A stretch of 64,000 nt of DNA from Thermocrinis minervae (GTDB lineage: Bacteria; Aquificota; Aquificia; Aquificales; Aquificaceae), in NCBI RefSeq assembly GCF_900142435.1, contig NZ_LT670846.1, positions 62,001 through 126,000 of the forward strand, given 5' to 3'. Shown in pieces: positions 13,652 to 25,474 of the stretch. The stretch's first letter is position 1; every line of letters begins with the position of its first letter. The position numbers were made by a program, and so were the translations under genes. The notes beneath the pieces were generated by a model, which searched no databases, was not told the origin of the DNA, and worked only from the letters and a program-made list of their open reading frames with translations.

Positions 13652-13846
13652 TTGAAGAAGAGAAAGTCCAAGAAAAGAAAAAAGAAACCATCTAAAGACC
13701 TCATAAAGACAACTATTAGCCTGCCTTTAAACCTGTGGAAGGAACTAAAGCTGGAAAGTATAGAAAAGAGAAAAACGCTTGGAGAGTTAATAACTGAAAA
13801 GCTAAAGAGATTAGAAAGACTGGAAAAGAAAGCGAGGCTTATTTAA
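13652..13846 (+). CDS. Small basic ribbon-helix-helix DNA-binding protein
   Basis: A 64-residue protein with a Lys/Arg-rich tail (KKRKSKKRKKK) followed by a CopG/Arc-like pattern. The beta strand is IKTTISLPLNLW, then helix ELKLESIEKRKTLGELI and a second helix TEKLKRLERLEKK. TTG 13652 is preferred: AGGAGGG (13639-13645) is 6 nt upstream, while the earlier TTG at 13646 directly abuts the site. Its 3' end overlaps cas2 on the other strand by 4 nt. The palindromes just upstream suggest self-repression. It could also act on the cas operon, but nothing in the sequence proves that. Confidence 0.65.
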   Translation: MKKRKSKKRKKKPSKDLIKTTISLPLNLWKELKLESIEKRKTLGELITEKLKRLERLEKKARLI

Positions 13847-14124
13847 ATTAAATTGTCCGTAGGGTCTGAAGAATTGGTGATTATCTCCCTTCTGTAATGA
13901 AAACTTTCCTCAAAAGTGTATATGATCACAGAATCCTTATACAAGTCTACCACTTGTAATATTTCATACTTTAACCTTTCTAAAGAAGACTGGGTTATAT
14001 TCCCCTCAAAAACAGACTTCTGTATATGATGTAGGTATTTTTTGGCTATCTTTCTAACTTTGTTGAGCCTTTTTTGACCCTCGGGATCATCCGTAGCAAC
14101 ATCGTAGACCATTATGACTCTCAT
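13843..14124 (-). CDS. cas2: CRISPR-associated Cas2
   Basis: Cas2 is the dimeric core of the spacer-integration complex. The 93-residue protein starts MRVIMVYDVATDDPEGQKRL, with the conserved Asp at residue 8. HIQKSVFEGNIT and a second strand VIIYTF complete the ferredoxin-like fold. It is the last gene of the cas operon; its ATG overlaps cas1 by 4 nt. Confidence 0.96.
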   Translation of the reverse strand: MRVIMVYDVATDDPEGQKRLNKVRKIAKKYLHHIQKSVFEGNITQSSLERLKYEILQVVDLYKDSVIIYTFEESFHYRREIITNSSDPTDNLI

Positions 14125-15071
14125 ACCAAGCTTCCATAGTAGAGAGGAGCGTAGACTTCTTCCTCTAGAAGGTGCCTTATAAGCTTGAAGAGCTCAATTC
14201 TTATGAGCTCTCTGTGAGATACGTTCCGTTTTAGCTTTCTGTGTCTTACTGTGCTCTCTAAAAGATTATCAAACTCCTTGACAAACATCCTTCTACCTTC
14301 AGGATTTAGATAAGTCATGTTAAGGTCATGGTTGAAGTGTTCTATAGTTATTTTGTTGCTCTTTAAAAGTTTGATTATAAGCATATCTGATAGGATGGGT
14401 TTGAAAACTTCTGCTACATCTAATGCCAAAGAAAACCTCTTAGTAGACGGCTCGTGGAGATAGCTTATGGTGGGGTTTAGGTGAGTGTAGTATATCTCAC
14501 CAAGAACCTTAGCGTAAACTAAGGAGTTTGCAAAGGAAATGAGTGCGTTTAAGGGGTTGTGTGGCGGTCTTTTTGTCCTTCTCTCGAGCTCAAGTCCTAC
14601 CTCTTGGGAAAGCTTCTCGTAACATAGCTTTCTAAAAGCTCCTTCTACCTGCATTACTTCAGCTATACTTTTTGCATCATTTAGCTTTTGTATGTAGCTT
14701 TGAGAGTCTAGGGAGTACACCCAAGATAGGTTCCTTATGCTTCCTTCTACGAAAGCTTTAGCCAGATATAACCTTTTACGTTCCTGAAGATAGTGTTCAG
14801 CTTGCTTTACCAAGAGATAACCAGAAACGTGCGTTTCCCTTGGATAGTAACTACCCATATAGTAACCATAGTAGCTAAAAACATGAAGACATACACCTTT
14901 CTCAGATAAAAACTTTAAAAGCTTAGTATTCAAGGAAAGCTCACATATGACAAATATCTCATCAACGTCTTCTATGGGGATTTCTTTTCTTGCGTTTGAG
15001 TTTTCAAAGAGAAGAGAGTTTTCATGTCGCGAAAGGAAGCCATCGCTCAGTAGGTAATAAACCCTACCCAT
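14121..15071 (-). CDS. cas1: CRISPR-associated Cas1 integrase, type I-B class
   Basis: Cas1 is the metal-dependent integrase that inserts new spacers. From ATG 15071 the protein is 316 residues and begins MGRVYYLLSDGFLSR, the usual N-terminus for type I-B Cas1. The catalytic Glu lies in VEGAFRKLCYE (about residue 143). The catalytic His lies in YLHEPSTKRFSL (about 206), with the acidic residue shortly after in LDVAEVFKP. An ATG at 15092 would add seven residues inside cas4 without family support. It overlaps cas4 and cas2, giving the order cas4-cas1-cas2. Confidence 0.96.
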   Translation of the reverse strand: MGRVYYLLSDGFLSRHENSLLFENSNARKEIPIEDVDEIFVICELSLNTKLLKFLSEKGVCLHVFSYYGYYMGSYYPRETHVSGYLLVKQAEHYLQERKRLYLAKAFVEGSIRNLSWVYSLDSQSYIQKLNDAKSIAEVMQVEGAFRKLCYEKLSQEVGLELERRTKRPPHNPLNALISFANSLVYAKVLGEIYYTHLNPTISYLHEPSTKRFSLALDVAEVFKPILSDMLIIKLLKSNKITIEHFNHDLNMTYLNPEGRRMFVKEFDNLLESTVRHRKLKRNVSHRELIRIELFKLIRHLLEEEVYAPLYYGSLV

Positions 15072-15567
15072 AGCAGAACTCTTCGTAGGCACACTTTTTA
15101 CAGTAGGGCTTTACCTCTAAAGGTGGGGGCTTTGGCATAGAGAGTATTTTCTCTATACCCTCTAATATCTTTTTTAACTCTTCCTGATCCTCTTCCGAGA
15201 AGTACACCCTCAGGACCTTTCTTTGTTTTGGGTAGTGAAGTATACCGTAAGAGACCTTTACCGACATATTACTCAGATAGTACATGTAATACTTGACTTG
15301 CCAAATGTGAGCTTCCTCCAAAGCCCTTGAGAGTTTTATCTCATGCACTACCAAACCTTCCTCTGTAGTGTAAAAGTCTATGCTTACGTTTTCATCCGAA
15401 TAGTCTTCTTCATCCTTAAAGCTTGTCTCATCTAAGAATTTTCCTAGGCTTACTCTTTCCGAAAAGTGCTCCATAGAAATGCCCTTTGAAAAAAGCCACA
15501 ACTTTCTTTTACATACCACGTAATAAACTACCTGTATGCCTTTAAACTTTAGCTCTTTTAAGTTCAA
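15064..15567 (-). CDS. cas4: CRISPR-associated Cas4 nuclease
   Basis: Cas4 is an iron-sulfur RecB-like nuclease that trims prespacers and checks the PAM. The 167-residue protein has Cys19 (VVCKRKLWLFSKG) near the N-terminus, the nuclease strand VVHEIKLSRALEE, and the C-terminal cluster YCKKCAYEEFC. This gives the four cysteines expected for a 4Fe-4S cluster. Its ATG overlaps the cas3 stop as ATGA. Confidence 0.93.
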   Translation of the reverse strand: MNLKELKFKGIQVVYYVVCKRKLWLFSKGISMEHFSERVSLGKFLDETSFKDEEDYSDENVSIDFYTTEEGLVVHEIKLSRALEEAHIWQVKYYMYYLSNMSVKVSYGILHYPKQRKVLRVYFSEEDQEELKKILEGIEKILSMPKPPPLEVKPYCKKCAYEEFCYG

Positions 15568-17762
15568 AGTACGTTGTCTATGCTACCCTTTTCCTCTTTC
15601 GATGGCTCCCAGTAACCTAGCTCTTCATCGTAGTAGCCAGAAAGCCAGTACATTCCCCTTAGTTCCTCTATTTGTCTTATGCGAGCTTTTACTGCGTACC
15701 TAGGTACACTAAAGGTATAGCCAAGGATATCTGAAAATACCCTAAGTCTTTCTAGGATATCACGCGAATCCCTATAGATTTTAATAAGTTCCTCTACTTC
15801 CTCTCTGTACTTTTCAGGTATTACAGTTACAGAGTCTATATCTCTAAAAAGACCCATAGCTTTTTCTTTTTTAAAAGTTTCTCCCATGCTCCAAAGGCTT
15901 TTGATATACCTTTTAGCTTCCCTATATTCATCTAAATATTTTTTGTCTTTATATTCCAGTAGCTCATAGACTTCTTCAACAAGCTTAAATTTCTCCTCTT
16001 CGGATATTATCCCTTCCCTCAATTTCTCTTTTGTGAGCTCATACAAACTTCTTCTGTACACCGGTCCTATACCAGAGCAATCCTCCGTAAAGATGTAGAC
16101 ATTTGGTTTGTCAACAGGTTTTAGACTTCTTCTGTTTACCCTTCCCATCCTCTGTATGAGAGAGTCGGCCGTGGATAGCTCTGTCAGTAAAATGTCTGCA
16201 TCGAGGTCTAGGGAAACTTCTGCTATCTGTGTACATATCCAAATACCCTTTTCTGTACTATCAAAGAAAGATCTTATTTCCTTTTCTTTTTCCTTTCTTA
16301 CGTTCCAAGTGTAGTAAGAATGCAAAAGATTTAGATTTTCAAAGCCTTTTTCTTTCAATTTCTCAAATAGATCTATGGCTCTTCTTCTTGTATTTACTAC
16401 CACAAGGACCTTACCTTCAGAAGACAGTCTTCCGATGAGTTCTATAGCATAGTCTGAGAGTATGCTATCCCTTATAAGCTTTAGATGATGCCTGTCCCTT
16501 GGATAGAAGAACTTTTCCTCCAGGTAATTTAAATCTTTAAGGTCTTCCCTTACAAAACTCGGAAGTGTAGCTGTCATCACTAAAAACTTACCGCCTATCT
16601 CCTGAGCTTTCTGCAATGCCATGACTAGATAACCCAAGGTAAAAGGCTCAAAGAGTTGAAGTTCATCCACTACAACCCCGGAATAGGAGAAAAGAGCGTA
16701 GTATTTTTCAAAACCCTTAAACCTAAACACAAAGGGAAAGAGCTGGTCTGGCGTGGCCACTATAAGAGGCTTGGCGAAGTTCCTAGTGAGGAATATATCG
16801 TAGATAATAGAGTAGGGATCCGTATTCCTTCTAATATCATCTGTATTCCTTCTAAAATTATCAAGGTTTTCTAAAAGGTAGACGCTAGCTGTGGAGTGTA
16901 AAAGCCCTATATCTTCCTCTCCGAAAACTTCTTTAGCTCTTTCGTATATGGCGTTTACAGATGTTCTTATTGGAACTGTAAAGAAACCCTTCCCTTCAAG
17001 GTAGATAAAACCTGCCTCCGTTTTACCCATACCTGTGGAAGCTAAAAGCAGTAGGTTTTTGTCCCTGTTTTCTAGCACCCACCTTTGCATATGGTTTAAG
17101 TCAGACCCTTTTTCTTTGTTTAAGTAATCTCTGACACATTTAGGCGTATTCTCTAGTCTTTTCACTTCTACCTTTTCCACCTTTGAACTACTTGCGTGAT
17201 CTATCCTTAACAAGAACCCTTTGAGAAGTAAGTAAAACTTTCTCCAATCTTCTAAACGCTTGAGGATATCCTCCTCAGATTGGATTAGGACTTTCTTGTG
17301 GTAGGACTCAAGCTCTAAATTCAAACTTTTTAAAGCTTTTATTACATCTTGTTCACGATAATCTGAAGGAGAGTACTCATGATGGTGGACTATTGCTAGG
17401 GCTACCAACGTTTTTATTGGATCTTCCAGATCTTTTGGAAGAAAGGCAGGGGAAAGAAGGTTGTGTCTTACCTCTGGCTCTTTTGCACGTTTGAATTCAG
17501 GTGCACGTTTGAATTCAGGATTTCCTAGCTTCCCCTGAAAGGCAGGGTAGATTTTACCGTAATCGTGATACTCGCAGGCAAGCTCAAGGGCTTTCCAGAA
17601 AAGGTCCCTTTTATCCTCTGGAAGGTTATTCTCTATCAGGCTACCAAACAGTTCTCTGAGATTGCGTAGGTTTTCAAGCAGTGTATCAGTGTGATCCCTT
17701 ATGGATGTGCCATCAGACTTAGCCCACAGCTTCTTCAGTTGAGACTCAAGATTGTGTATCAC
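15564..17762 (-). CDS. cas3: CRISPR-associated Cas3 nuclease-helicase
   Basis: Cas3 is recruited by Cascade to unwind and degrade target DNA. The 732-residue protein has an N-terminal HD nuclease (EYHDYGKIYPAFQG; IVHHHEY). A superfamily 2 helicase follows: Walker A ASTGMGKTEAG, motif II VVDELQLFEP, motif III MTATLPS, motif VI QRMGRVNRR. The start is GTG 17762, overlapping the upstream small gene by 17 nt. Oddities: an exact 18-bp tandem duplication (17484-17519) repeats PEFKRA in the HD domain. A 21-bp imperfect one near 16821-16862 repeats an RRNTD unit. Both keep the frame, so the enzyme should be functional. Confidence 0.94.
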   Translation of the reverse strand: MIHNLESQLKKLWAKSDGTSIRDHTDTLLENLRNLRELFGSLIENNLPEDKRDLFWKALELACEYHDYGKIYPAFQGKLGNPEFKRAPEFKRAKEPEVRHNLLSPAFLPKDLEDPIKTLVALAIVHHHEYSPSDYREQDVIKALKSLNLELESYHKKVLIQSEEDILKRLEDWRKFYLLLKGFLLRIDHASSSKVEKVEVKRLENTPKCVRDYLNKEKGSDLNHMQRWVLENRDKNLLLLASTGMGKTEAGFIYLEGKGFFTVPIRTSVNAIYERAKEVFGEEDIGLLHSTASVYLLENLDNFRRNTDDIRRNTDPYSIIYDIFLTRNFAKPLIVATPDQLFPFVFRFKGFEKYYALFSYSGVVVDELQLFEPFTLGYLVMALQKAQEIGGKFLVMTATLPSFVREDLKDLNYLEEKFFYPRDRHHLKLIRDSILSDYAIELIGRLSSEGKVLVVVNTRRRAIDLFEKLKEKGFENLNLLHSYYTWNVRKEKEKEIRSFFDSTEKGIWICTQIAEVSLDLDADILLTELSTADSLIQRMGRVNRRSLKPVDKPNVYIFTEDCSGIGPVYRRSLYELTKEKLREGIISEEEKFKLVEEVYELLEYKDKKYLDEYREAKRYIKSLWSMGETFKKEKAMGLFRDIDSVTVIPEKYREEVEELIKIYRDSRDILERLRVFSDILGYTFSVPRYAVKARIRQIEELRGMYWLSGYYDEELGYWEPSKEEKGSIDNVL
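17484..17519 (-). repeat. Exact 18-bp tandem duplication inside cas3
   Basis: TGCACGTTTGAATTCAGG occurs at 17484-17501 and again at 17502-17519. It adds six residues (a second PEFKRA) to the HD domain of Cas3 without changing the frame, and looks like a recent slippage event. Confidence 0.9.
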
Positions 17763-18051
17763 CCTTAATCCTCCCGTTCAGTCCCATCACGAAGGCGTAG
17801 GCTATACGGTTAAAGGCTTTATCTGTCAGAACGTCCTTAAACACATCAGGTATAGGTTTTTCAACTTCAAGGAAAGCCCTTATAAGGTTTTGACAGAAGG
17901 CATCTATATCCTTCCTCCTTATAGACTCCAGGAGCTTGTAGGTTATCACTTCTATCTTTTTGCTTGCCCTTTCCGGTCCTAAAGAACTTTCGTACTCCTT
18001 CCTTAACTTAGAGCCTTCCCAATAAACCACATTGATCTTGTTAATATCCAT
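17746..18051 (-). CDS. Stand-alone Cas8-C-terminal paralogue, candidate Cas11 small subunit (copy 2)
   Basis: A 101-residue helical protein clearly related to the last 80 or so residues of the Cas8 two genes upstream. Its block QNLIRAFLEVEKPIPDVF (54-71) matches QTLIRAYIDIDKEIPKVL of Cas8 at 9 of 18 positions. VYWEGSKLRKEY and FNRIAYAFVMGL also have counterparts. The C-terminal domain of Cas8 in type I-B complexes is the small-subunit (Cas11) part, so this is probably a dedicated Cas11-like subunit lining the Cascade belly. It overlaps both neighbours (11 and 17 nt), so expression is operonic. Confidence 0.72.
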   Translation of the reverse strand: MDINKINVVYWEGSKLRKEYESSLGPERASKKIEVITYKLLESIRRKDIDAFCQNLIRAFLEVEKPIPDVFKDVLTDKAFNRIAYAFVMGLNGRIKGDTQS

Positions 18052-18364
18052 GGCTTACACCTCCAAGGAGTTTTTCTCTTAAGCCTTCCAAAAAGGCATG
18101 AGCTATCTTCTTAAGACTTCTAAAGTAGATAGCATCTAAGAAAACTGGAGAGAGTGGCCTTTTTATCTGCATGTACATCCTAACCACGTTTTCACAAAAG
18201 CTATCCAGACAATCCTTCTGTAAACACTCTTCTAACACTTTGTACATACTTTCTAAAGCCTCTTTTGAATTACTTTCAAACCTACATATCCAAGCTTCAC
18301 CTACCCTAAGGCCCTCTCTATAAGCCCAAGCTATGTACTTTTCAAGAAGTACCTCGTCCCTCAT
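18041..18364 (-). CDS. Stand-alone Cas8-C-terminal paralogue, candidate Cas11 small subunit (copy 1)
   Basis: A 107-residue helical protein, more diverged than its neighbour but with the same plan. It has AYREGLRVGEAW, then YKVLEECLQKDCLDSFCENV, then VVRMYMQIKRPLSPVF (60-75) and KKIAHAFLEGL. It aligns without gaps to the adjacent 101-residue protein and to residues about 390-466 of Cas8. It starts at ATG 18364 inside the cas8 end (23-nt overlap). I infer a Cas11-type role; whether the two copies are interchangeable or occupy different positions cannot be told from sequence. Confidence 0.68.
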   Translation of the reverse strand: MRDEVLLEKYIAWAYREGLRVGEAWICRFESNSKEALESMYKVLEECLQKDCLDSFCENVVRMYMQIKRPLSPVFLDAIYFRSLKKIAHAFLEGLREKLLGGVSHGY

Positions 18365-19772
18365 CCGTAACAGCCCCCAACCCTATTAGAAAAGAGTAGG
18401 CAGTCCAATTAAACCCTTCCTCTGTGAGTCCATGGATAAGCACTTTGGGTATTTCCTTATCGATATCAATGTAGGCTCTTATGAGCGTCTGATAGAAGAG
18501 GTCTACGTTACGCATTCTGACTGCTTCGAAGAGATTGAGGGATATAGCATTAAGTTTTTCCTTATCGTACGATTTTCCTAAGCTTTTTCCTTCCTTGTAC
18601 ACCTTCTCTATGGGCTCGTCTAAATTCTTTCCATCATTGTTTAGACTTTCTTGAAACTTAACAAAGTAGATAAGGCCTGCTGTACTTTTTAGCCCAGCTC
18701 CCACCTTTTCCAACGTTTGCACATTCACCTTCGTGTAGGTGTTCTTGTGGAAAAATCCTGATAGAAGTTTTAGTAGAAACTCGTACAAAGATCTTTCCGA
18801 GTAGATGTAGTCCAAGAAAAACCCCAATACACTCTCAAGGAATTTGGGATAACTATCTATCCTTTCATTCAACACTATTGCTACCTTTGGTGGAATGCTA
18901 AAGGAATGGATGTTAGCTTTGGCGTTACCAACAAGTTCTATCTCTACTATATAGATATTTTTCAGAGTCCATTCGATCTTCCTACCTTCTAACTCTTTTA
19001 AATATTCAGTAAATAGCATCTTAAGGTATTTTGTAGAAATTCCCTTCTCCCCCTTTAAAATGGTGTTCATATCGTATGTTTTTTTCAGATCGGGCATGTA
19101 CACAAAAGTGTACTTCTTATTCCCAGTAGGTAAAAAACCAAAGATGGAAAAGTACAAGAATATCTCACATTCTGGACATAGGTACTGATTGCTCCGTCCG
19201 TTATAGAAAAAGTTCTCCACCGTCTTGGGGCTGGCAGAAAGAGGAGTAAAATTGGTAGCATCAAAAACTTTAACTTCTTTATTTTTTATGTAAGCTTTTC
19301 TTTCTCCACAGAAGAAGCACGTTTTATCAGAAGTTTTATAGCTTCTAATAGTGTCAAACTGTTTCTTTATGAAATTGGCTATAGCTTGTTTGGCATCCTT
19401 GTAAAGTTTCTCCGTATCCTGGGATATCTCTATCTGTACTTCCTGTGCTTTGCTTGCACTACTTGGGTTAGCTAATGGACTGTTAGAGTAGAAGCTTTTT
19501 AACTTACTCAAAACTAGAGTGTTATACACGTTTATAGTGCTTTCCTTTTTTTTCTGTCTCTCCTTCTCAATGATATCTTTTAATTTTTCTACAGTGATAT
19601 CCTTAAGCAGATACTCAGCGTAGTAATCTGCCAAACGTTCAAAAACATCTTCAGGAACATCTATTCTGTTTCCCTCGATAGGGACAGAATTTTTAACATT
19701 CTCAAGCACCCTTAAAAGCCCCACACCAGCTGCAGCTGTGAGCCAGTCGTTTACATAGAAAACTATACCCAT
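18342..19772 (-). CDS. cas8b: Type I-B large subunit Cas8 (Cst1-like, CXXC-CXXC)
   Basis: This is the large subunit of the type I-B Cascade, which recognises the PAM and supports the R-loop. The 476-residue protein has the paired zinc-binding motifs CFFC (152-155) and CPEC (199-202) that define the Cst1 family. A C-terminal helical domain (about 390-466) is duplicated as two separate genes downstream. It starts at ATG 19772, overlapping cas5 by 10 nt. Cas8 proteins diverge quickly, so the family name rests on the CXXC-CXXC pattern and on position next to cas5 and cas7. Confidence 0.85.
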   Translation of the reverse strand: MGIVFYVNDWLTAAAGVGLLRVLENVKNSVPIEGNRIDVPEDVFERLADYYAEYLLKDITVEKLKDIIEKERQKKKESTINVYNTLVLSKLKSFYSNSPLANPSSASKAQEVQIEISQDTEKLYKDAKQAIANFIKKQFDTIRSYKTSDKTCFFCGERKAYIKNKEVKVFDATNFTPLSASPKTVENFFYNGRSNQYLCPECEIFLYFSIFGFLPTGNKKYTFVYMPDLKKTYDMNTILKGEKGISTKYLKMLFTEYLKELEGRKIEWTLKNIYIVEIELVGNAKANIHSFSIPPKVAIVLNERIDSYPKFLESVLGFFLDYIYSERSLYEFLLKLLSGFFHKNTYTKVNVQTLEKVGAGLKSTAGLIYFVKFQESLNNDGKNLDEPIEKVYKEGKSLGKSYDKEKLNAISLNLFEAVRMRNVDLFYQTLIRAYIDIDKEIPKVLIHGLTEEGFNWTAYSFLIGLGAVTDEGRGTS

Positions 19773-20407
19773 AGGAAATCTCCCTCCTCATCCACAAAGA
19801 CTTCACCTTCTATGTAGGAACCATTAGGATAGTAGTAAACTGTCTGCCAAGTCCACTCTCCCTTTGAAATGGTGTCTTTCCAGAAGGATGGTATTCTAAA
19901 GGCTATACCTGAGCCACTAAACACCTGCTTGTATCTTTCAGGAACGTAAGCGGAGAGCTTTATATCCTGATTCTCCATAGCTCTCTCTTGGTAGCTTACT
20001 ATCTTCACATCCTTTACCATTACTGGATACTCACCACCGCCTAGGAAGAGGTAAGTGCTTGGATTCTTTAAGGACCTTTCAAACTCTACGAGGAGATCCC
20101 TTTGCCCGACTATATGGATAACACATTCAAGCTCAAACAGTTTTGGCACCTCTATAGGTAAAACCTCAAGTAACTTATCCTTTCTGTTGTACTTTCTGAA
20201 CCTTATGTAGTCCCTGAATATACTTTTGTAAGTACCTTGTACAGATATGCTAAACTTCTCACCCTGCCATCTTCTGCCTGCTGCAGTGTAAAGCAAGCCT
20301 ATTATGGTAGAGTAAGTAGGAAGAGGATAAGTCTCTATACCCTTTAGGGAGAAAGGCGTTTTAAAGGTAGCGCAGGGAGAAAAGAGTCTAAACTTAAGAC
20401 ACTCCAT
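19763..20407 (-). CDS. cas5: CRISPR-associated Cas5
   Basis: Cas5 is the RAMP subunit that caps the 5' handle of the crRNA. The 214-residue protein has the typical Cas5 N-terminus (LKFRLFSPCATFKTPFSLKG), the motif TYPLPTYSTIIGLLYTAAGR, and a glycine turn LFLGGGEYPV. It lies between cas7 and cas8 with overlaps of 14 and 10 nt. The overall form fits Cas5t of Cst-type I-B systems. Confidence 0.92.
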   Translation of the reverse strand: MECLKFRLFSPCATFKTPFSLKGIETYPLPTYSTIIGLLYTAAGRRWQGEKFSISVQGTYKSIFRDYIRFRKYNRKDKLLEVLPIEVPKLFELECVIHIVGQRDLLVEFERSLKNPSTYLFLGGGEYPVMVKDVKIVSYQERAMENQDIKLSAYVPERYKQVFSGSGIAFRIPSFWKDTISKGEWTWQTVYYYPNGSYIEGEVFVDEEGDFLWV

Positions 20408-21362
20408 AGTGCTTCCTCACCTGAGCTTTTAACCTCTCCAGGGCATCACCTATGGAAGTAGCACCTAAGTTTTTTATGTCCTCTTCGTTACCAAATACAC
20501 CTGCGTGAAGACCTATGACCACATTATCCCTGTCTTCTTCGGGAACTAGCTTTTTGGCATCTTCCAGCCTTCTTGTGTCCAGGAAAAGTTTTCCATTTTC
20601 CTCTACAGCATGGACGCCTTTTATAAAGAAGGGATGTTTTACCTTGAATACTCCTCCTACTACAAATACTGGAGAAAGATCTTCCCACCTTCCCCTTATC
20701 TGTCTGTTTAGGGTAAAAACTATGTCAAGAAGGTCTACTACTCTCTTAGCGCGTTCTTCTTTAGTAAGTACCTCTTCCTTTTTTTCTACCAAGCCACCTT
20801 CCTCCCAAACTCCTACCCTGTCAAGGTCAACTGTAAGGGTATAGACATAATGCGAAGTATGTTCTTCGTTGTTGGCTATAGCTTGAGCATCTTTTTTCTC
20901 TATATGCTTTATGTACCTGTTATAGGCGTCTATGTTGTTGAGAAAGTTCACATCTCCCTTGAAAGGTGAAATAGAGAAGGCATAGGTGAGCTTCACGGGT
21001 GAGGTTCTCTTTACACTGTCACCATACGATAGTTCATAATCAAAATTGGTAAACAACCCTCCAAAGAGATCAAACTCGTGGTAATCTTTTACTAGCTTTT
21101 TTCCAAAGTTGTCTACGTTTAGCTTGTTATTCTCTAAGTTATCTTCCACGTAATTCTTGATAAGACTATCCATTAGCTTCCAGCCCTTTTCCTCTTTACC
21201 CTTCCTGCGTATGTCGTATTTGAGAGCCTTGTCAGACACATATGTTAACTGGGTGCCGTCTCCCAAAGAGACCTTCTTAAGCACAGACACGTTACCTATG
21301 TTCTCTCCGTAGTTGAGACTCATAGCTTTAGCTGTTATTACCGTAAGTGTAAAACCACCCAT
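20394..21362 (-). CDS. cas7: CRISPR-associated Cas7 (Cst2/DevR family)
   Basis: Cas7 is the repeated backbone subunit that coats the crRNA. The start is ATG 21362 because AAAGGAGG lies 8 nt upstream and the protein then begins MGGFTLTVITAKAMSLNYGE, the usual Cst2 opening. It has 322 residues. RAMP features include TYAFSISPFKGDVNFLNNID, TSHYVYTLTVDLDRVG and the late strand FVVGGVFKVKHPFF. It is the first effector-complex gene after the Calp module and the only one in the operon preceded by a real gap (58 nt). Confidence 0.92.
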   Translation of the reverse strand: MGGFTLTVITAKAMSLNYGENIGNVSVLKKVSLGDGTQLTYVSDKALKYDIRRKGKEEKGWKLMDSLIKNYVEDNLENNKLNVDNFGKKLVKDYHEFDLFGGLFTNFDYELSYGDSVKRTSPVKLTYAFSISPFKGDVNFLNNIDAYNRYIKHIEKKDAQAIANNEEHTSHYVYTLTVDLDRVGVWEEGGLVEKKEEVLTKEERAKRVVDLLDIVFTLNRQIRGRWEDLSPVFVVGGVFKVKHPFFIKGVHAVEENGKLFLDTRRLEDAKKLVPEEDRDNVVIGLHAGVFGNEEDIKNLGATSIGDALERLKAQVRKHYGVS

Positions 21363-21420
21363 AGTTAAACCTCCTTTCACTATGTATAAACTCCCAAAAC
21401 TTACCTTTTCTGACACGACC
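21363..21420 (-). promoter_or_regulatory. Only intergenic gap in the defence operon; possible internal promoter of cas7
   Basis: All other junctions from hisIE to cas2 abut, overlap or are a few bases apart, but calpL and cas7 are 58 nt apart. On the minus strand the gap holds TATACA (21388-21383), a possible -10, followed by the strong ribosome-binding site AAAGGAGG. No clear -35 was seen. A promoter read by CalpS is a guess. Confidence 0.3.
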
Positions 21421-22833
21421 TTAAGACTCCCTTAAATCTCTTAAAAACTCAATGTCTAGCACTTTCTTGTAGGTGCCTTGCTCATAGTTGTATATGCTTC
21501 CGGGGTTGTAGTGTCCGAACGCCACACCTACTAGGAATGCTATAGGTACTGGACAGGAGAAGAAGAAGTGGAATCTCTTTATCGTTGCTGTTTTAGCTAC
21601 TTCCTGTATGGCTCCGGCGATTTCCCTGGCTATGTCTTTGAAGTTTTCTACTGGAAGGTTTCCACCGCCTTGAGTTTCTATCACAAGGTAAGTGGCGTTA
21701 GTTAAAGGCAAGCTATTGAGCTGTACAGAGTGATGAGCGAGGTTTATAACCACGGCTACTTCTTCACCACTGCCTGTTACTGTGTAGTTTATAAGTCTTG
21801 GATTTCCACTCAGTCTTTCTTTTATGTACCTCACATTATCCACTACTATGGGACGGTAAGCATTGTTTTGGAAGTGGTATATGGTAAAAGGCTTGAAGCT
21901 TCCGTGTAGGATTCCCAGTGCGAAAGCCAAGGCTGCGGGTCCCCTTATGGCTATATGAAGATGGAAACCTCCAAGAACACTTCCTATATGCTTGAGTCTT
22001 GAATAAAACTCTTTACAGACTTCTTGCCATCTTTGGTCTTTGATCTGGCCAGTCCAAAGCACGGGCTCTATACCAAAAGTTTCAAGGTATGCAAGCTCAA
22101 GGTTAAGGTCTTCGATCTGTAGATTTCTTGTAAAGTCCTTCAGTTCGTCCTGGTGTTTTTCTGAAGATGTTATGAGCATAGGAATATGGTGTATGTCCTT
22201 GTTTAGCCAGTTTAAAAGGCTCTTTAGGTCAGGCTTTGGAAGCTTGGCAGGGTCTACGAGTATATAGCCTTCTCTAGCAGCTATCTTCTTCTTCTCTTCT
22301 ATGTGATTAGCCCGTAGTATCCTTCCATCTTGGCTTAGCTCTCCTGTGAAGAGTACACCTTCAGGGATGCGTTCAGACATAAGGCTAACGGCTAGAGGGA
22401 GCTGGAAGCTCTTTCCTGTAAACTCCGTATCATAGAAGACTGCAAAGCCAGAGCCTACTATCTTTTTAAGCCTTTGGTGTTTTTCTTTTCCTACGTTGGT
22501 CACAACCTTAGAAAGGCCTTTTACGGCTATGCCTCTCACGATCTTGCCTGGGCCGCCTGTTAAATCTACAACCGGGAATTTGACCTCTATAGGGTCTCCT
22601 ATCAGAAACTTATGCGTATCATCCTCAGAGAGTCCGAGGACTTTCTTTAGAACTTTCCACTCCGGCCTCTTCCCATGCTTCTTGATGTACGATATTAGCT
22701 CATACTGCTTGAAGGGGCTCAGAGTCCAAAAGTCCTCAAAGATCTCCGTAAGCTTGTCATCCAACTTACCCTCTTCAAGCAGCACCTTGAAGTGGGCGTC
22801 TCTGATCTCCTCATAATTCCATCTCTTACTCAT
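21421..22833 (-). CDS. calpL: CalpL: SAVED-domain Lon protease of the CRISPR-Calp signalling module
   Basis: CalpL is a soluble protease that, in the known Sulfurihydrogenibium system, binds cyclic tetra-adenylate through SAVED, oligomerises and cleaves CalpT. From ATG 22833 (GAGGAGA just upstream) it has 470 residues. The Lon-like domain shows GKSFQLPLAVSLMSE with the likely nucleophile Ser142, then VLFTGELSQDGRI and HIEEKKKIAAREG with the partner Lys near 182. The C-terminal SAVED domain shows two similar halves, FHLHIAIRGPAALAFALG (about 290) and FHFFFSCPVPIAFLVG (about 421). Both catalytic residues look intact. It overlaps calpT by 8 nt. Here it sits in a type I-B operon with no Cas10. 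Confidence 0.86.
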   Translation of the reverse strand: MSKRWNYEEIRDAHFKVLLEEGKLDDKLTEIFEDFWTLSPFKQYELISYIKKHGKRPEWKVLKKVLGLSEDDTHKFLIGDPIEVKFPVVDLTGGPGKIVRGIAVKGLSKVVTNVGKEKHQRLKKIVGSGFAVFYDTEFTGKSFQLPLAVSLMSERIPEGVLFTGELSQDGRILRANHIEEKKKIAAREGYILVDPAKLPKPDLKSLLNWLNKDIHHIPMLITSSEKHQDELKDFTRNLQIEDLNLELAYLETFGIEPVLWTGQIKDQRWQEVCKEFYSRLKHIGSVLGGFHLHIAIRGPAALAFALGILHGSFKPFTIYHFQNNAYRPIVVDNVRYIKERLSGNPRLINYTVTGSGEEVAVVINLAHHSVQLNSLPLTNATYLVIETQGGGNLPVENFKDIAREIAGAIQEVAKTATIKRFHFFFSCPVPIAFLVGVAFGHYNPGSIYNYEQGTYKKVLDIEFLRDLRES

Positions 22834-23671
22834 GACTCTCCTCACATGACTCCACTGAGAGGTACTTTTCCAAAACTTCAATTTCAGCTCTTATACCTTC
22901 CGGCAGCTCAATTTCTATACAGTAATCGGCTACACCTCTAAGGATAACCTTGTCCAAAATCTTCACTTCTACGCAGCCTGCTACTAGGTCTTCTGTGGGG
23001 TATATGTAAAGCTTCCCGCCTTCTATAACTCCCAGATAGTTCTCCCCTCTTATCGACTTTCCGATGGAAGATGCCGCAAGGCTAAGCATCGCTTCCTTAT
23101 CCATTTGCTTTATCTTTTCCAAAGCTTCTTTGAAAGCTGTAAGATCTATAAACTTCGGATACTCTTCTTCCTGCTGATATTCTTGAACCTCCACGTGGTA
23201 AAAGAGGGAAGATGTGTTCAAATCAGCGAATCTTTTGGCAAAAAGATCGATAAACTTGTCCGTCCATTTACCCCAACCCTTAAGTTTTTTACTATCCGCA
23301 AATTGATAGATCTTTTCTACCTCCTGCTTGTTCTTCAGTTCAAACAGTACCAGGGAATGCTTTTCTAGAAGCTCCCTTCTTGCATAGACCCAGAATGGGA
23401 GTGGTGCATAGTAGTGTTTCTTATGGTGGATTACAGGTGGGTTTAATGGCAGGAGCATGGTGAGGAGTGAGGTTAGTGGTACAACTATAAAGAGGTCTCT
23501 TTCTACTTCTTTGACTACCAGGATCTTCTCCTCTGCTGGAGTTAGCCATTCTCTTACTTGTCCGACTTCTACTTTCTGCCTGTTTCCCTCTTCCACGGTT
23601 AACAGATCATCCACTTTTACTATACTTCTGTACAGCTTGTAGATTTTCTCTTGCTCCTTTTCCACGTCCAT
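22826..23671 (-). CDS. calpT: CalpT: MazF-like anti-sigma protein, probable CalpL substrate
   Basis: In the described system CalpT is a MazF-fold protein of about 33 kDa that holds the sigma factor CalpS and is cut by CalpL to set it free. This 281-residue protein lies exactly between calpS and calpL and has the right size. A MazF-like stretch LFIVVPLTSLLTML (about 60-73) is visible. The C-terminal third (KLYIYPTEDLVAGCVEVK onward) would be the sigma-binding fragment. I assign it mainly by position, length and this weak fold signal. ATG 23671 is chosen; GTG 23674 is adjacent and in frame. Confidence 0.75.
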   Translation of the reverse strand: MDVEKEQEKIYKLYRSIVKVDDLLTVEEGNRQKVEVGQVREWLTPAEEKILVVKEVERDLFIVVPLTSLLTMLLPLNPPVIHHKKHYYAPLPFWVYARRELLEKHSLVLFELKNKQEVEKIYQFADSKKLKGWGKWTDKFIDLFAKRFADLNTSSLFYHVEVQEYQQEEEYPKFIDLTAFKEALEKIKQMDKEAMLSLAASSIGKSIRGENYLGVIEGGKLYIYPTEDLVAGCVEVKILDKVILRGVADYCIEIELPEGIRAEIEVLEKYLSVESCEESHE

Positions 23672-23677
23672 CACGTT

Positions 23678-24328
23678 TTAGTCCTCACTATTTTTATAAC
23701 TACGATAGTTACAAACTTCTGACAGTAATCTTTCTACGATCATTTTTAACTCACTCTCGGAAAGCCGGTACTCAAGGATTTTGTTTATCTTCTTCTTTGT
23801 CCTTTCCCAGGTTTTGTAAACATTGTCTTTAGAGATGCCCTTTAGTTCTTCTACATCGCCATAAAGATACTTCCGAAGATAATAACAGAGCACCATCTTT
23901 TCCCTGTCAGATAGACTACTGACTATAAGGTTGTAAGTTTGGTCTAACTCTACCTGAGAGTCTATTCCTTTATAGTAAGGGGTAAGACTTTGAACATCCA
24001 CAACCTCTGCCCGCTGCTCATCAAGGGATATACTTAGAAGATTTTTATCGTACAAATCCAGAAGTGTATTTTTTATCATGATACCTATGTAGGATATTTT
24101 TAGTTCTTCTTTTCTTAAAAGTTCAGCTTTTTTCGTGAGTATCTTGTATTTGATCTCAGAAGCAACATCTTCTACCCAGTCTTCTCCTAAGAACTTTCGC
24201 ATAGTTTCTTCCATCCCCGATGATCTACTAATTCTGATTATCAAGTTCTTTAGATAAACTTCAGCCTTTTTATACTCTTTAGGATCATCACCAAGTAGCT
24301 TAGATATAAGATCCTTTGCATCTTTCAT
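23678..24328 (-). CDS. calpS: CalpS: ECF-like sigma factor of the Calp module
   Basis: A 216-residue sigma-like protein. Residues about 22-105 resemble sigma region 2 (WVEDVASEIKYKILTKKAELL; ISYIGIMIKNTLLDLYDK). Residues about 145-195 resemble region 4 (SLSDREKMVLCYYLRKYLYG, then KGISKDNVYKTWERTKKKI as the helix-turn-helix). In the known module, CalpS is inactive while bound to CalpT and joins RNA polymerase after CalpT cleavage. Its ATG overlaps the upstream gene as ATGA, and calpT begins 6 nt after its stop. Confidence 0.8.
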   Translation of the reverse strand: MKDAKDLISKLLGDDPKEYKKAEVYLKNLIIRISRSSGMEETMRKFLGEDWVEDVASEIKYKILTKKAELLRKEELKISYIGIMIKNTLLDLYDKNLLSISLDEQRAEVVDVQSLTPYYKGIDSQVELDQTYNLIVSSLSDREKMVLCYYLRKYLYGDVEELKGISKDNVYKTWERTKKKINKILEYRLSESELKMIVERLLSEVCNYRSYKNSED

Positions 24329-24789
24329 ACTCTTTTATCCTCAAATGAAACTACACAGTTCTCCTCAATGTATTTGTCGATTATATCCAAATCTTTACAA
24401 TATCCGCATCCTATAAAGTTGAATACGCCACTTTTTAGTCTATAACCTGTTATCCTTTTCCTATGTCTGTCATAAAAGAGGTATGAATTACGCTTGATCC
24501 ACTTACATTCCGAGGCTGTTTTAACACATGCACCTAAATCAATGTTTGTATCCTTGTCTTTGTAAAACTTCTTAGTGGTTAGGAAAAATACAATCAAATA
24601 TTCACCCTGTTCTACATACACGAATGGCCTTCGCTTGTTTGGATCCTTCATGTATCCAAGGTCCGTTTTTAGTAGATCTTCTAAAAGTTTCAAATTCTGT
24701 GGATCTACAAACCCCAGGAATTTAAAATTTTTAATAAGCTTATGTCCCTTTGTCTGAAATATTAAGCCAAAGTCAAACCCCTCGCTCAC
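24325..24789 (-). CDS. Unknown 154-residue protein between cas6 and calpS
   Basis: I do not recognise this protein. It starts at GTG 24789, overlapping the cas6 end by 17 nt, and overlaps calpS by 4 nt, so it is made with the Calp module. NKRRPFVYVEQGEYLIVFFL followed by TTKKFYKD recalls the opening strands of MazF/PemK-fold proteins. CalpT is also MazF-like, so a second MazF-fold member is possible but weakly supported. It contains a GCGYCKDLD element and five cysteines in all, which could bind a metal. It has no membrane segment. Confidence 0.55.
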   Translation of the reverse strand: MSEGFDFGLIFQTKGHKLIKNFKFLGFVDPQNLKLLEDLLKTDLGYMKDPNKRRPFVYVEQGEYLIVFFLTTKKFYKDKDTNIDLGACVKTASECKWIKRNSYLFYDRHRKRITGYRLKSGVFNFIGCGYCKDLDIIDKYIEENCVVSFEDKRV

Positions 24790-25474
24790 ACCTGTCTACC
24801 TCCAGGTAGCCAAAACCCTGTCCTGTCCTAACACCAAGGCCACACTGGTAGACAAACTTTAGCAGCTCCTCAGACTCCGTTTCTATTCTAAACCTGCCCA
24901 AGAAGGCTGGAATGTTACCACCATAATGCTTTACTTGTTGTGGCTTTATCTCCACAGGTACAAACTTGAACTCCTTTACCCTTGGTATGTATCCTTTTAT
25001 GCTGGCAAACCTCTTTAGCGTGTTTTCCAAAAGGGACTCGTTAAAAAGATCATCAGCTGGTAGTAGGTACTTACCTGCCTCGGAAATCCTCTGTACTACC
25101 ACAGGAGAAAGGGTCTTAAAGCACCCATTCACCTTTTGTTCCCTCTCCTCCTTTATGCTTTCTATTATAAACTTTCCCGTGCCTATTGGGTGCATATATA
25201 GAGATTCCTTTAGCCTAGCCATGGAGATGTAAAACCTTACAGCTAGTACGCTATAGCATGTGGAAAACCTGAAGTTAATTTTCTGAACGTTTTTAATTAG
25301 CTTGTCTTCAAAAATGGCATCTTGGAAAAAGACTGCAAAGGTATAAGCCCTAGGACTACTTCCTTCAAACTCTTCAGGTCCTAAAGCCTTTTTCAGAAGG
25401 GCTATAAATCTACTTCTGTAGTCTACAGATACTGTGGCGGGTTCCAAGCTTCTCAGAACAACTAAAAACCTCAT
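24773..25474 (-). CDS. cas6: CRISPR-associated Cas6 endoribonuclease
   Basis: Cas6 cuts the CRISPR precursor transcript within the repeats to make crRNAs. The 233-residue RAMP protein begins MRFLVVLRSLEPATVSVDYR. The MHPIGTGKFIIESI segment is in the middle, and it ends with the glycine-rich loop CGLGVRTGQGFGYLEV that marks Cas6. Its ATG directly abuts the hisIE stop (TAG then ATG, no base between), so the cas operon is transcriptionally fused to hisIE. Confidence 0.93.
   Translation of the reverse strand: MRFLVVLRSLEPATVSVDYRSRFIALLKKALGPEEFEGSSPRAYTFAVFFQDAIFEDKLIKNVQKINFRFSTCYSVLAVRFYISMARLKESLYMHPIGTGKFIIESIKEEREQKVNGCFKTLSPVVVQRISEAGKYLLPADDLFNESLLENTLKRFASIKGYIPRVKEFKFVPVEIKPQQVKHYGGNIPAFLGRFRIETESEELLKFVYQCGLGVRTGQGFGYLEVDRCERGV

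What the first reader, a model, noticed from the sequence alone, without database searches (positions are those of the whole stretch)
21421..24789. A complete Calp protease-sigma-factor module embedded in a type I-B CRISPR operon with no Cas10
Seen: calpS, calpT and calpL lie in order between cas6 and cas7, all overlapping or nearly so, in an operon whose other Cas genes are type I-B. Known: the CalpL-CalpT-CalpS system was described from a type III locus, where Cas10 makes cyclic tetra-adenylate that activates CalpL. No polymerase/cyclase gene of the Cas10, CD-NTase or Pycsar kind is visible in this window. Inference: either the module is driven in trans by a type III system elsewhere, so that one alarm signal tunes type I-B expression through CalpS, or it senses a different second messenger. 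Either way, it would link RNA-sensing immunity to transcription of a DNA-targeting system.
Basis: partly seen in the sequence, partly recalled or inferred. Interest (0 to 1): 0.95.

Follow-up and report, generated by a model that had tools for sequence, protein, structure and literature searches.

The report
Calp alarm module inside DNA-targeting CRISPR operon
A set of genes that turns a CRISPR alarm molecule into a gene-expression response sits inside a DNA-targeting CRISPR operon, while the only recognisable enzyme that could make the alarm lies about 268,000 bases away on the same chromosome, so the two CRISPR systems are probably wired together across the genome.

Summary
On the minus strand, cas6, an uncharacterised gene (X), calpS, calpT and calpL run without gaps into cas7-cas5-cas8b-cas11-cas11-cas3-cas4-cas1-cas2 of type I-B. 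CalpL keeps the Ser-Lys dyad and the key SAVED residues. The CalpT C-terminal model's best match among solved structures is CalpT10.

The apparent lack of Cas10 is only local. The complete 1.37-Mb genome has one type III-B locus, 268 kb away: cmr1-cas10-cmr3-6 plus a membrane CARF protein. Cas10 has an intact GGDD motif. The genome's only detected Cas6 is in the I-B operon and all five CRISPR arrays share one repeat, so the two systems depend on each other. No CBASS SMODS cyclase was found.

Relatives explain the layout. Thermocrinis-like Aquificaceae carry X-calpS-calpT-calpL-cas6-cmr1-6-CARF-cas7-cas5-cas8b-cas3 as one cluster. Here the cmr block is elsewhere and Calp abuts cas7. No other Calp locus among those read has this junction, though Calp apart from Cas10 recurs.

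That CalpS regulates type I-B is unsupported. X lies just upstream of calpS in 41 of 42 Calp loci and has four invariant cysteines: a probable undescribed fourth Calp part.

The parts
24773..25474 (-). cas6, the only Cas6 detected in the genome; directly follows hisIE
   Evidence: TIGR01877 1.1e-30, above cut-off; single genomic hit
24325..24789 (-). X: 154-aa protein of unknown function with an RP motif and four invariant Cys (C88, C95, C128, C131); probable fourth gene of the Calp module
   Evidence: Homologue directly upstream of calpS in 41 of 42 Calp loci; invariants in a 30-sequence alignment; the Sulfurihydrogenibium homologue is PADLOC C3a162 'unknown function'
23678..24328 (-). calpS, ECF-like sigma factor; overlaps X by 4 bases
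   Evidence: PDLC01153 1.3e-36, the same family as prototype CalpS; TIGR02937 1.9e-07, below cut-off
22826..23674 (-). calpT, anti-sigma factor and protease substrate; C-terminal domain is CalpT10-like
   Evidence: PDLC01140 3.8e-33, PDLC01048 1.1e-10; Foldseek rank 1 = 8b0u_C CalpT10, probability 1.00, TMt 0.75, from a model built without the prototype sequence
21421..22833 (-). calpL, Lon-SAVED protease; ORF can extend to 22881; four bases before cas7
   Evidence: PDLC01159 1.2e-126; SAVED PF18145 2.8e-19; 8b0r/7qda CalpL 3e-29; S158, K197, H336, R351, K354, H384 conserved
20394..21416 (-). cas7 (Cst2/DevR, type I-B)
   Evidence: TIGR02585 1.3e-51, TIGR01875 1.3e-66
19763..20407 (-). cas5 (Cas5t, type I-B)
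   Evidence: TIGR01895 3.9e-46
18342..19772 (-). cas8b1 (Cst1); its C-terminus resembles the two small proteins that follow
   Evidence: TIGR01908 3.6e-37; blastp
18041..18364 (-). small Cas11-like protein a (107 aa)
   Evidence: PDLC02050 C-terminus 1.2e-07; blastp to Cas8b C-terminus 2e-08
17746..18051 (-). small Cas11-like protein b (101 aa)
   Evidence: Cas11b PDLC01193 4.5e-06; blastp to Cas8b C-terminus 3e-20
15564..17762 (-). cas3 (HD + helicase)
   Evidence: TIGR01587 3.6e-75, TIGR01596 1e-20
15064..15567 (-). cas4
   Evidence: TIGR00372 2.9e-30
14121..15092 (-). cas1
   Evidence: PDLC01335 1.1e-123
13843..14124 (-). cas2
   Evidence: PDLC01749 8.1e-28

Best explanation
This is a genuine and apparently intact Calp signalling module (X-calpS-calpT-calpL) that has ended up inside the type I-B operon of an Aquificaceae chromosome. 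It most likely works as the prototype does. The single III-B Cmr complex, encoded about 268 kb away and loaded with crRNAs from the shared arrays, recognises phage RNA; its Cas10 makes a cyclic oligoadenylate, most likely cA4. The cA4 binds the CalpL SAVED domain, CalpL oligomerises and its Lon domain cuts CalpT, freeing CalpS to redirect RNA polymerase. CalpL also destroys the cA4 and so resets itself. The layout comes from shuffling of an ancestral composite III-B/I-B cluster: the cmr block is elsewhere and Calp abuts cas7. Shown: gene content, intact active-site residues, Cas10 with GGDD on the same chromosome, one Cas6, one repeat family, and the composite architecture in relatives. Inferred: cA4 as the product, CalpT cleavage, CalpS release, and which genes CalpS controls.
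For: All three Calp genes match their families. CalpL aligns with SsCalpL and AcrIII-2 structures and keeps Ser158, Lys197, His336, Arg351, Lys354, His384. The CalpT C-terminal model's best PDB match is CalpT10. III-B locus at genome 352055-358175 with cmr1, cas10, cmr3-6 and an adjacent TM-CARF gene; Cas10 reads YAGGDDILAF. Only one Cas6, one CalpL and one Cas10 were found. Five arrays, one repeat. Relatives carry X-S-T-L-cas6-cmr-CARF-cas7-cas5-cas8b as one cluster, and G000 CalpL, Cas10 and Cas7 group with those genomes. CalpL and Cas10 co-occur across 136 Aquificota genomes: 48 both, 8 CalpL only, 26 Cas10 only, 54 neither, Fisher p 4e-10.
Against: No biochemistry: the messenger made by this Cas10 is unknown. 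The CalpL/Cas10 association test ignores phylogeny. Eight draft genomes have CalpL without a detected Cas10, so Calp may not always need it. Tree support for placing G000 CalpL and Cas10 with the composite clade is moderate (85/83 and 81/86), and the order of rearrangement events is not resolved.
Confidence: 0.8

Rival explanations
1. The module is a bridge: cA4 from III-B releases CalpS, and CalpS directly raises transcription of the I-B operon (including its own genes and the shared Cas6), a positive feedback from RNA sensing to DNA targeting.
For: CalpS lies in the same gap-free operon as I-B genes; the I-B operon holds the only Cas6 detected, which III-B also needs.
Against: No ECF-type promoter was identified. 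In relatives the first Calp gene is preceded by sigma-70-like TATAAT boxes (20 of 46 exact, 4.8 expected in shuffles), which suggests vegetative expression. In at least eight genomes Calp lies with 9 kb or more of downstream sequence and no cas7/cas5/cas8b, so I-B linkage is not needed.
Confidence: 0.12
2. The module senses a different second messenger and is independent of Cas10.
For: Eight draft Aquificota genomes carry CalpL with no detected Cas10.
Against: This genome has Cas10 with GGDD and no SMODS nucleotidyltransferase; CalpL keeps the residues linked to cA4 handling. All single-contig genomes with full CalpL in the survey carry Cas10.
Confidence: 0.06
3. The module is a non-functional leftover after the cmr genes moved away.
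For: It is separated from Cas10.
Against: All four genes are full length with conserved catalytic residues, tightly packed in the operon, and Cas10 is still in the genome. Separated but intact Calp modules recur in relatives.
Confidence: 0.05

Closest known systems
CalpL/CalpT/CalpS of Sulfurihydrogenibium sp. YO3AOP1 (Rouillon 2023; Binder 2024, PMC11417357; survey genome G099 by its size and CalpL sequence, my identification)
   Same: Same gene order X-calpS-calpT-calpL; same Lon Ser-Lys dyad and SAVED residues; same CalpT10 domain. The prototype is also followed by cmr genes, a TM-CARF gene, then cas6-cas8b-cas7-cas5-cas3.
   Different: Here calpL is followed directly by type I-B cas7, and the cmr/cas10 block is about 268 kb away. 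CalpL identity is about 25%.
Composite Calp + III-B + I-B clusters of Aquificaceae (survey genomes G051, G058, G061, G063, G023)
   Same: Same modules, and the same block order inside each module.
   Different: In those genomes cas6-cmr1-cas10-cmr3-6-(CARF) lies between calpL and cas7; here cas6 precedes X and the cmr block is elsewhere.
Inter-locus cOA signalling between type III loci (Hoikkala 2024, PMC11229360)
   Same: The idea that a cyclase locus activates effectors encoded elsewhere in the genome.
   Different: That survey looked for effectors within type III loci and inferred sharing between type III loci; here the effector module sits in a type I operon.

Membership tests
Calp system | Lon-type Ser-Lys protease domain in CalpL | tested here: met
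   S158 and K197 align with SsCalpL S152/K193 and are invariant in 51 sequences
Calp system | C-terminal SAVED domain with residues linked to cA4 handling (H345, H392, R361, K364 of SsCalpL) | tested here: met
   SAVED PF18145 2.8e-19; H336, H384, R351, K354 conserved; functional roles from PMC11417357
Calp system | CalpT with CalpT10-type C-terminal domain | tested here: met
   Foldseek rank 1 8b0u_C, probability 1.00, TMt 0.75; sequence profile alone weak, 0.09
Calp system | MazF-like N-terminal domain of CalpT | tested here: inconclusive
   Model confidence low (pTM 0.37); no MazF among the listed matches
Calp system | CalpS, an ECF-family sigma factor | tested here: met
   PDLC01153 1.3e-36, same family as the prototype; TIGR02937 only below cut-off
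Calp system | Encoded in a type III locus with Cas10 | tested here: not met
   No cas10 in the operon; Cas10 about 268 kb away. An observed context rather than a mechanistic requirement: several other genomes also have Calp apart from Cas10
Calp system | cA4-dependent cleavage of CalpT and release of CalpS | not testable with these tools
   Needs biochemistry
Type I-B CRISPR-Cas (Cst/Tneap) | Cas7/Cst2, Cas5t, Cas8b1/Cst1 with Cas3 and Cas6 | tested here: met
   All above curated cut-offs
Type III-B CRISPR-Cas (in trans locus) | Cas10/Cmr2 plus Cmr1, Cmr3-6 | tested here: met
   PADLOC matches for all six genes at genome 352055-358175
Type III-B CRISPR-Cas (in trans locus) | Intact GGDD cyclase motif in Cas10 | tested here: met
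   YAGGDDILAF in the translation
CBASS | SMODS/CD-NTase cyclase | tested here: not met
   No PF18144 match in the genome

The most novel reading that the evidence does not exclude
Calp is a four-part, relocatable signalling cassette (with the uncharacterised four-cysteine protein X as an active component) that here converts a III-B RNA alarm into transcription of the type I-B operon in which it is embedded, so that RNA sensing by one CRISPR type amplifies DNA targeting, crRNA processing and adaptation by another.
Probability: 0.12. Interest if true: 0.75.

Novelty: new variant of a known kind. Interest (0 to 1): 0.42.

Why it matters
It gives a clean case, in a complete genome, where a cOA effector lies outside every type III locus and is encoded in the operon of another CRISPR type. 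A survey restricted to type III loci would miss it. It makes trans-acting cOA signalling directly testable, and it points to X as an overlooked Calp component and to a concrete operon in which to look for CalpS targets.

Tried and rejected
Searched viral contigs, phages and plasmids with CalpL: no relatives. A broad CalpL alignment was too diverse to scan genome contigs; a narrower one found 11 Aquificota loci. Tested whether X is a paralogue of CalpT or CalpS by profile-profile comparison: no. The structure model of X was poor (pLDDT 48) and its fold search meaningless, so my first guess that X has a MazF/PemK-like fold is unproven. Promoter-like sites across the operon are no more frequent than in shuffles, so no CalpS or operon promoter could be called.

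Full report
Observation. The minus-strand operon reads hisIE, cas6, X, calpS, calpT, calpL, cas7, cas5, cas8b, two Cas11-like genes, cas3, cas4, cas1, cas2. Junctions are tight: cas6/X overlap by 17 bases, X/calpS by 4, calpS-calpT are 3 bases apart, calpT/calpL overlap, and calpL-cas7 are 4 bases apart. Family matches are far beyond chance.

Are the Calp proteins intact? CalpL aligns with the SsCalpL structures (8b0r, 7qda; 3e-29) and with the viral SAVED protein 9r8s (1e-44). Across 51 CalpL sequences the Ser-Lys dyad is invariant, and positions equivalent to SsCalpL H345, R361, K364 and H392, studied by mutation in PMC11417357, are kept. A model of the window's CalpT, built without the prototype sequence, has CalpT10 of 8b0u as its best structural match (probability 1.00, TM-score 0.75 on the target), although the model as a whole is weak. 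CalpS falls in the same PADLOC family as the prototype CalpS.

Where is the cyclase? The genome is one contig of 1,367,821 bases and the window is 62001-126000 of it. It holds one Cas10 (353167-355059) inside a complete cmr operon, followed by a membrane CARF gene. The palm motif reads GGDD. No SMODS cyclase was found. The cmr locus has no cas6; the only Cas6 detected is in the I-B operon, and all five CRISPR arrays share one repeat. III-B therefore probably depends on this operon for its crRNAs, as Calp depends on III-B for its signal. This mutual dependence is inferred from gene content.

Why this layout? In 136 Aquificota genomes, full-length CalpL occurs in 56 and strong Cas10 in 74, together in 48 (odds ratio 12.5, p 4e-10, uncorrected for phylogeny). 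Of 54 CalpL-bearing loci read, 30 have type III genes within 8 kb, and seven of these also have I-B genes in the stretch; none has cas7 directly after calpL. In G058, G061, G063 and G023 the order is calpL-cas6-cmr1-cas10-cmr3-6-CARF-cas7-cas5-cas8b. In G025 the cas6-cmr-cas7 cluster is intact and Calp stands alone on another contig. Trees of CalpL, Cas10 and Cas7 place this genome with the composite-cluster genomes at moderate to good support. The window's arrangement is thus a reshuffled composite: the cmr block is elsewhere, and Calp occupies the place between cas6 and cas7. Whether Calp was inserted or the cmr block excised cannot be decided. Calp distant from Cas10 also recurs in closed genomes G036, G037 and G097, so the trans arrangement is not unique; the direct Calp/I-B junction is, among the loci read.

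Promoters. The sequence just before X in relatives is enriched for TATAAT (20 of 46 exact; shuffles mean 4.8, maximum 11). The rows are related to each other, so this is indicative only. It suggests constitutive expression of the sensor module rather than CalpS autoregulation. Nothing found here shows that CalpS acts on type I-B genes.

X. A homologue lies directly upstream of calpS in 41 of 42 loci, including the prototype locus. Four cysteines and an Arg-Pro pair are invariant in 30 sequences. No Pfam family matches; the prototype's version is PADLOC 'C3a162, unknown function'. I found no mention of a fourth Calp gene in the papers held, but the original 2023 Nature paper is not held here, so this is not proof of absence.

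Verdict. Observation confirmed; the in-trans reading is supported; the different-messenger and I-B-tuning readings are not. Interest is moderate: a new arrangement of a known system with a plausible conserved extra component.

Noticed in passing
window 24325-24789: X, a four-cysteine protein of unknown function, is a near-constant neighbour of calpS in Aquificota; some genomes (G053, G056, G057) carry two copies in tandem.
   Followed up: partly
window 17746-19772: Cas8b C-terminus and the two small proteins that follow are homologous to one another (blastp 2e-08 to 3e-20), giving three small-subunit-like domains in one I-B operon.
   Followed up: partly
survey genomes G024, G041, G042, G043, G072, G074, G093, G119: Draft genomes with CalpL but no detected Cas10; either assembly gaps or Calp used with another signal.
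   Followed up: partly
L130:5369-6115 (and the same place in G037, G038, G047): A membrane CARF protein lies directly upstream of X in stand-alone Calp loci, so Calp may travel with its own CARF effector.
   Followed up: partly
genome 358114-359151 (L003:18114-19148): Membrane CARF protein following cmr6, a second likely cOA effector next to the III-B locus.
   Followed up: partly
L131:7646-8313: calpS is split into two ORFs in the closed genome G037, a possible frameshift or sequencing error.
   Followed up: no
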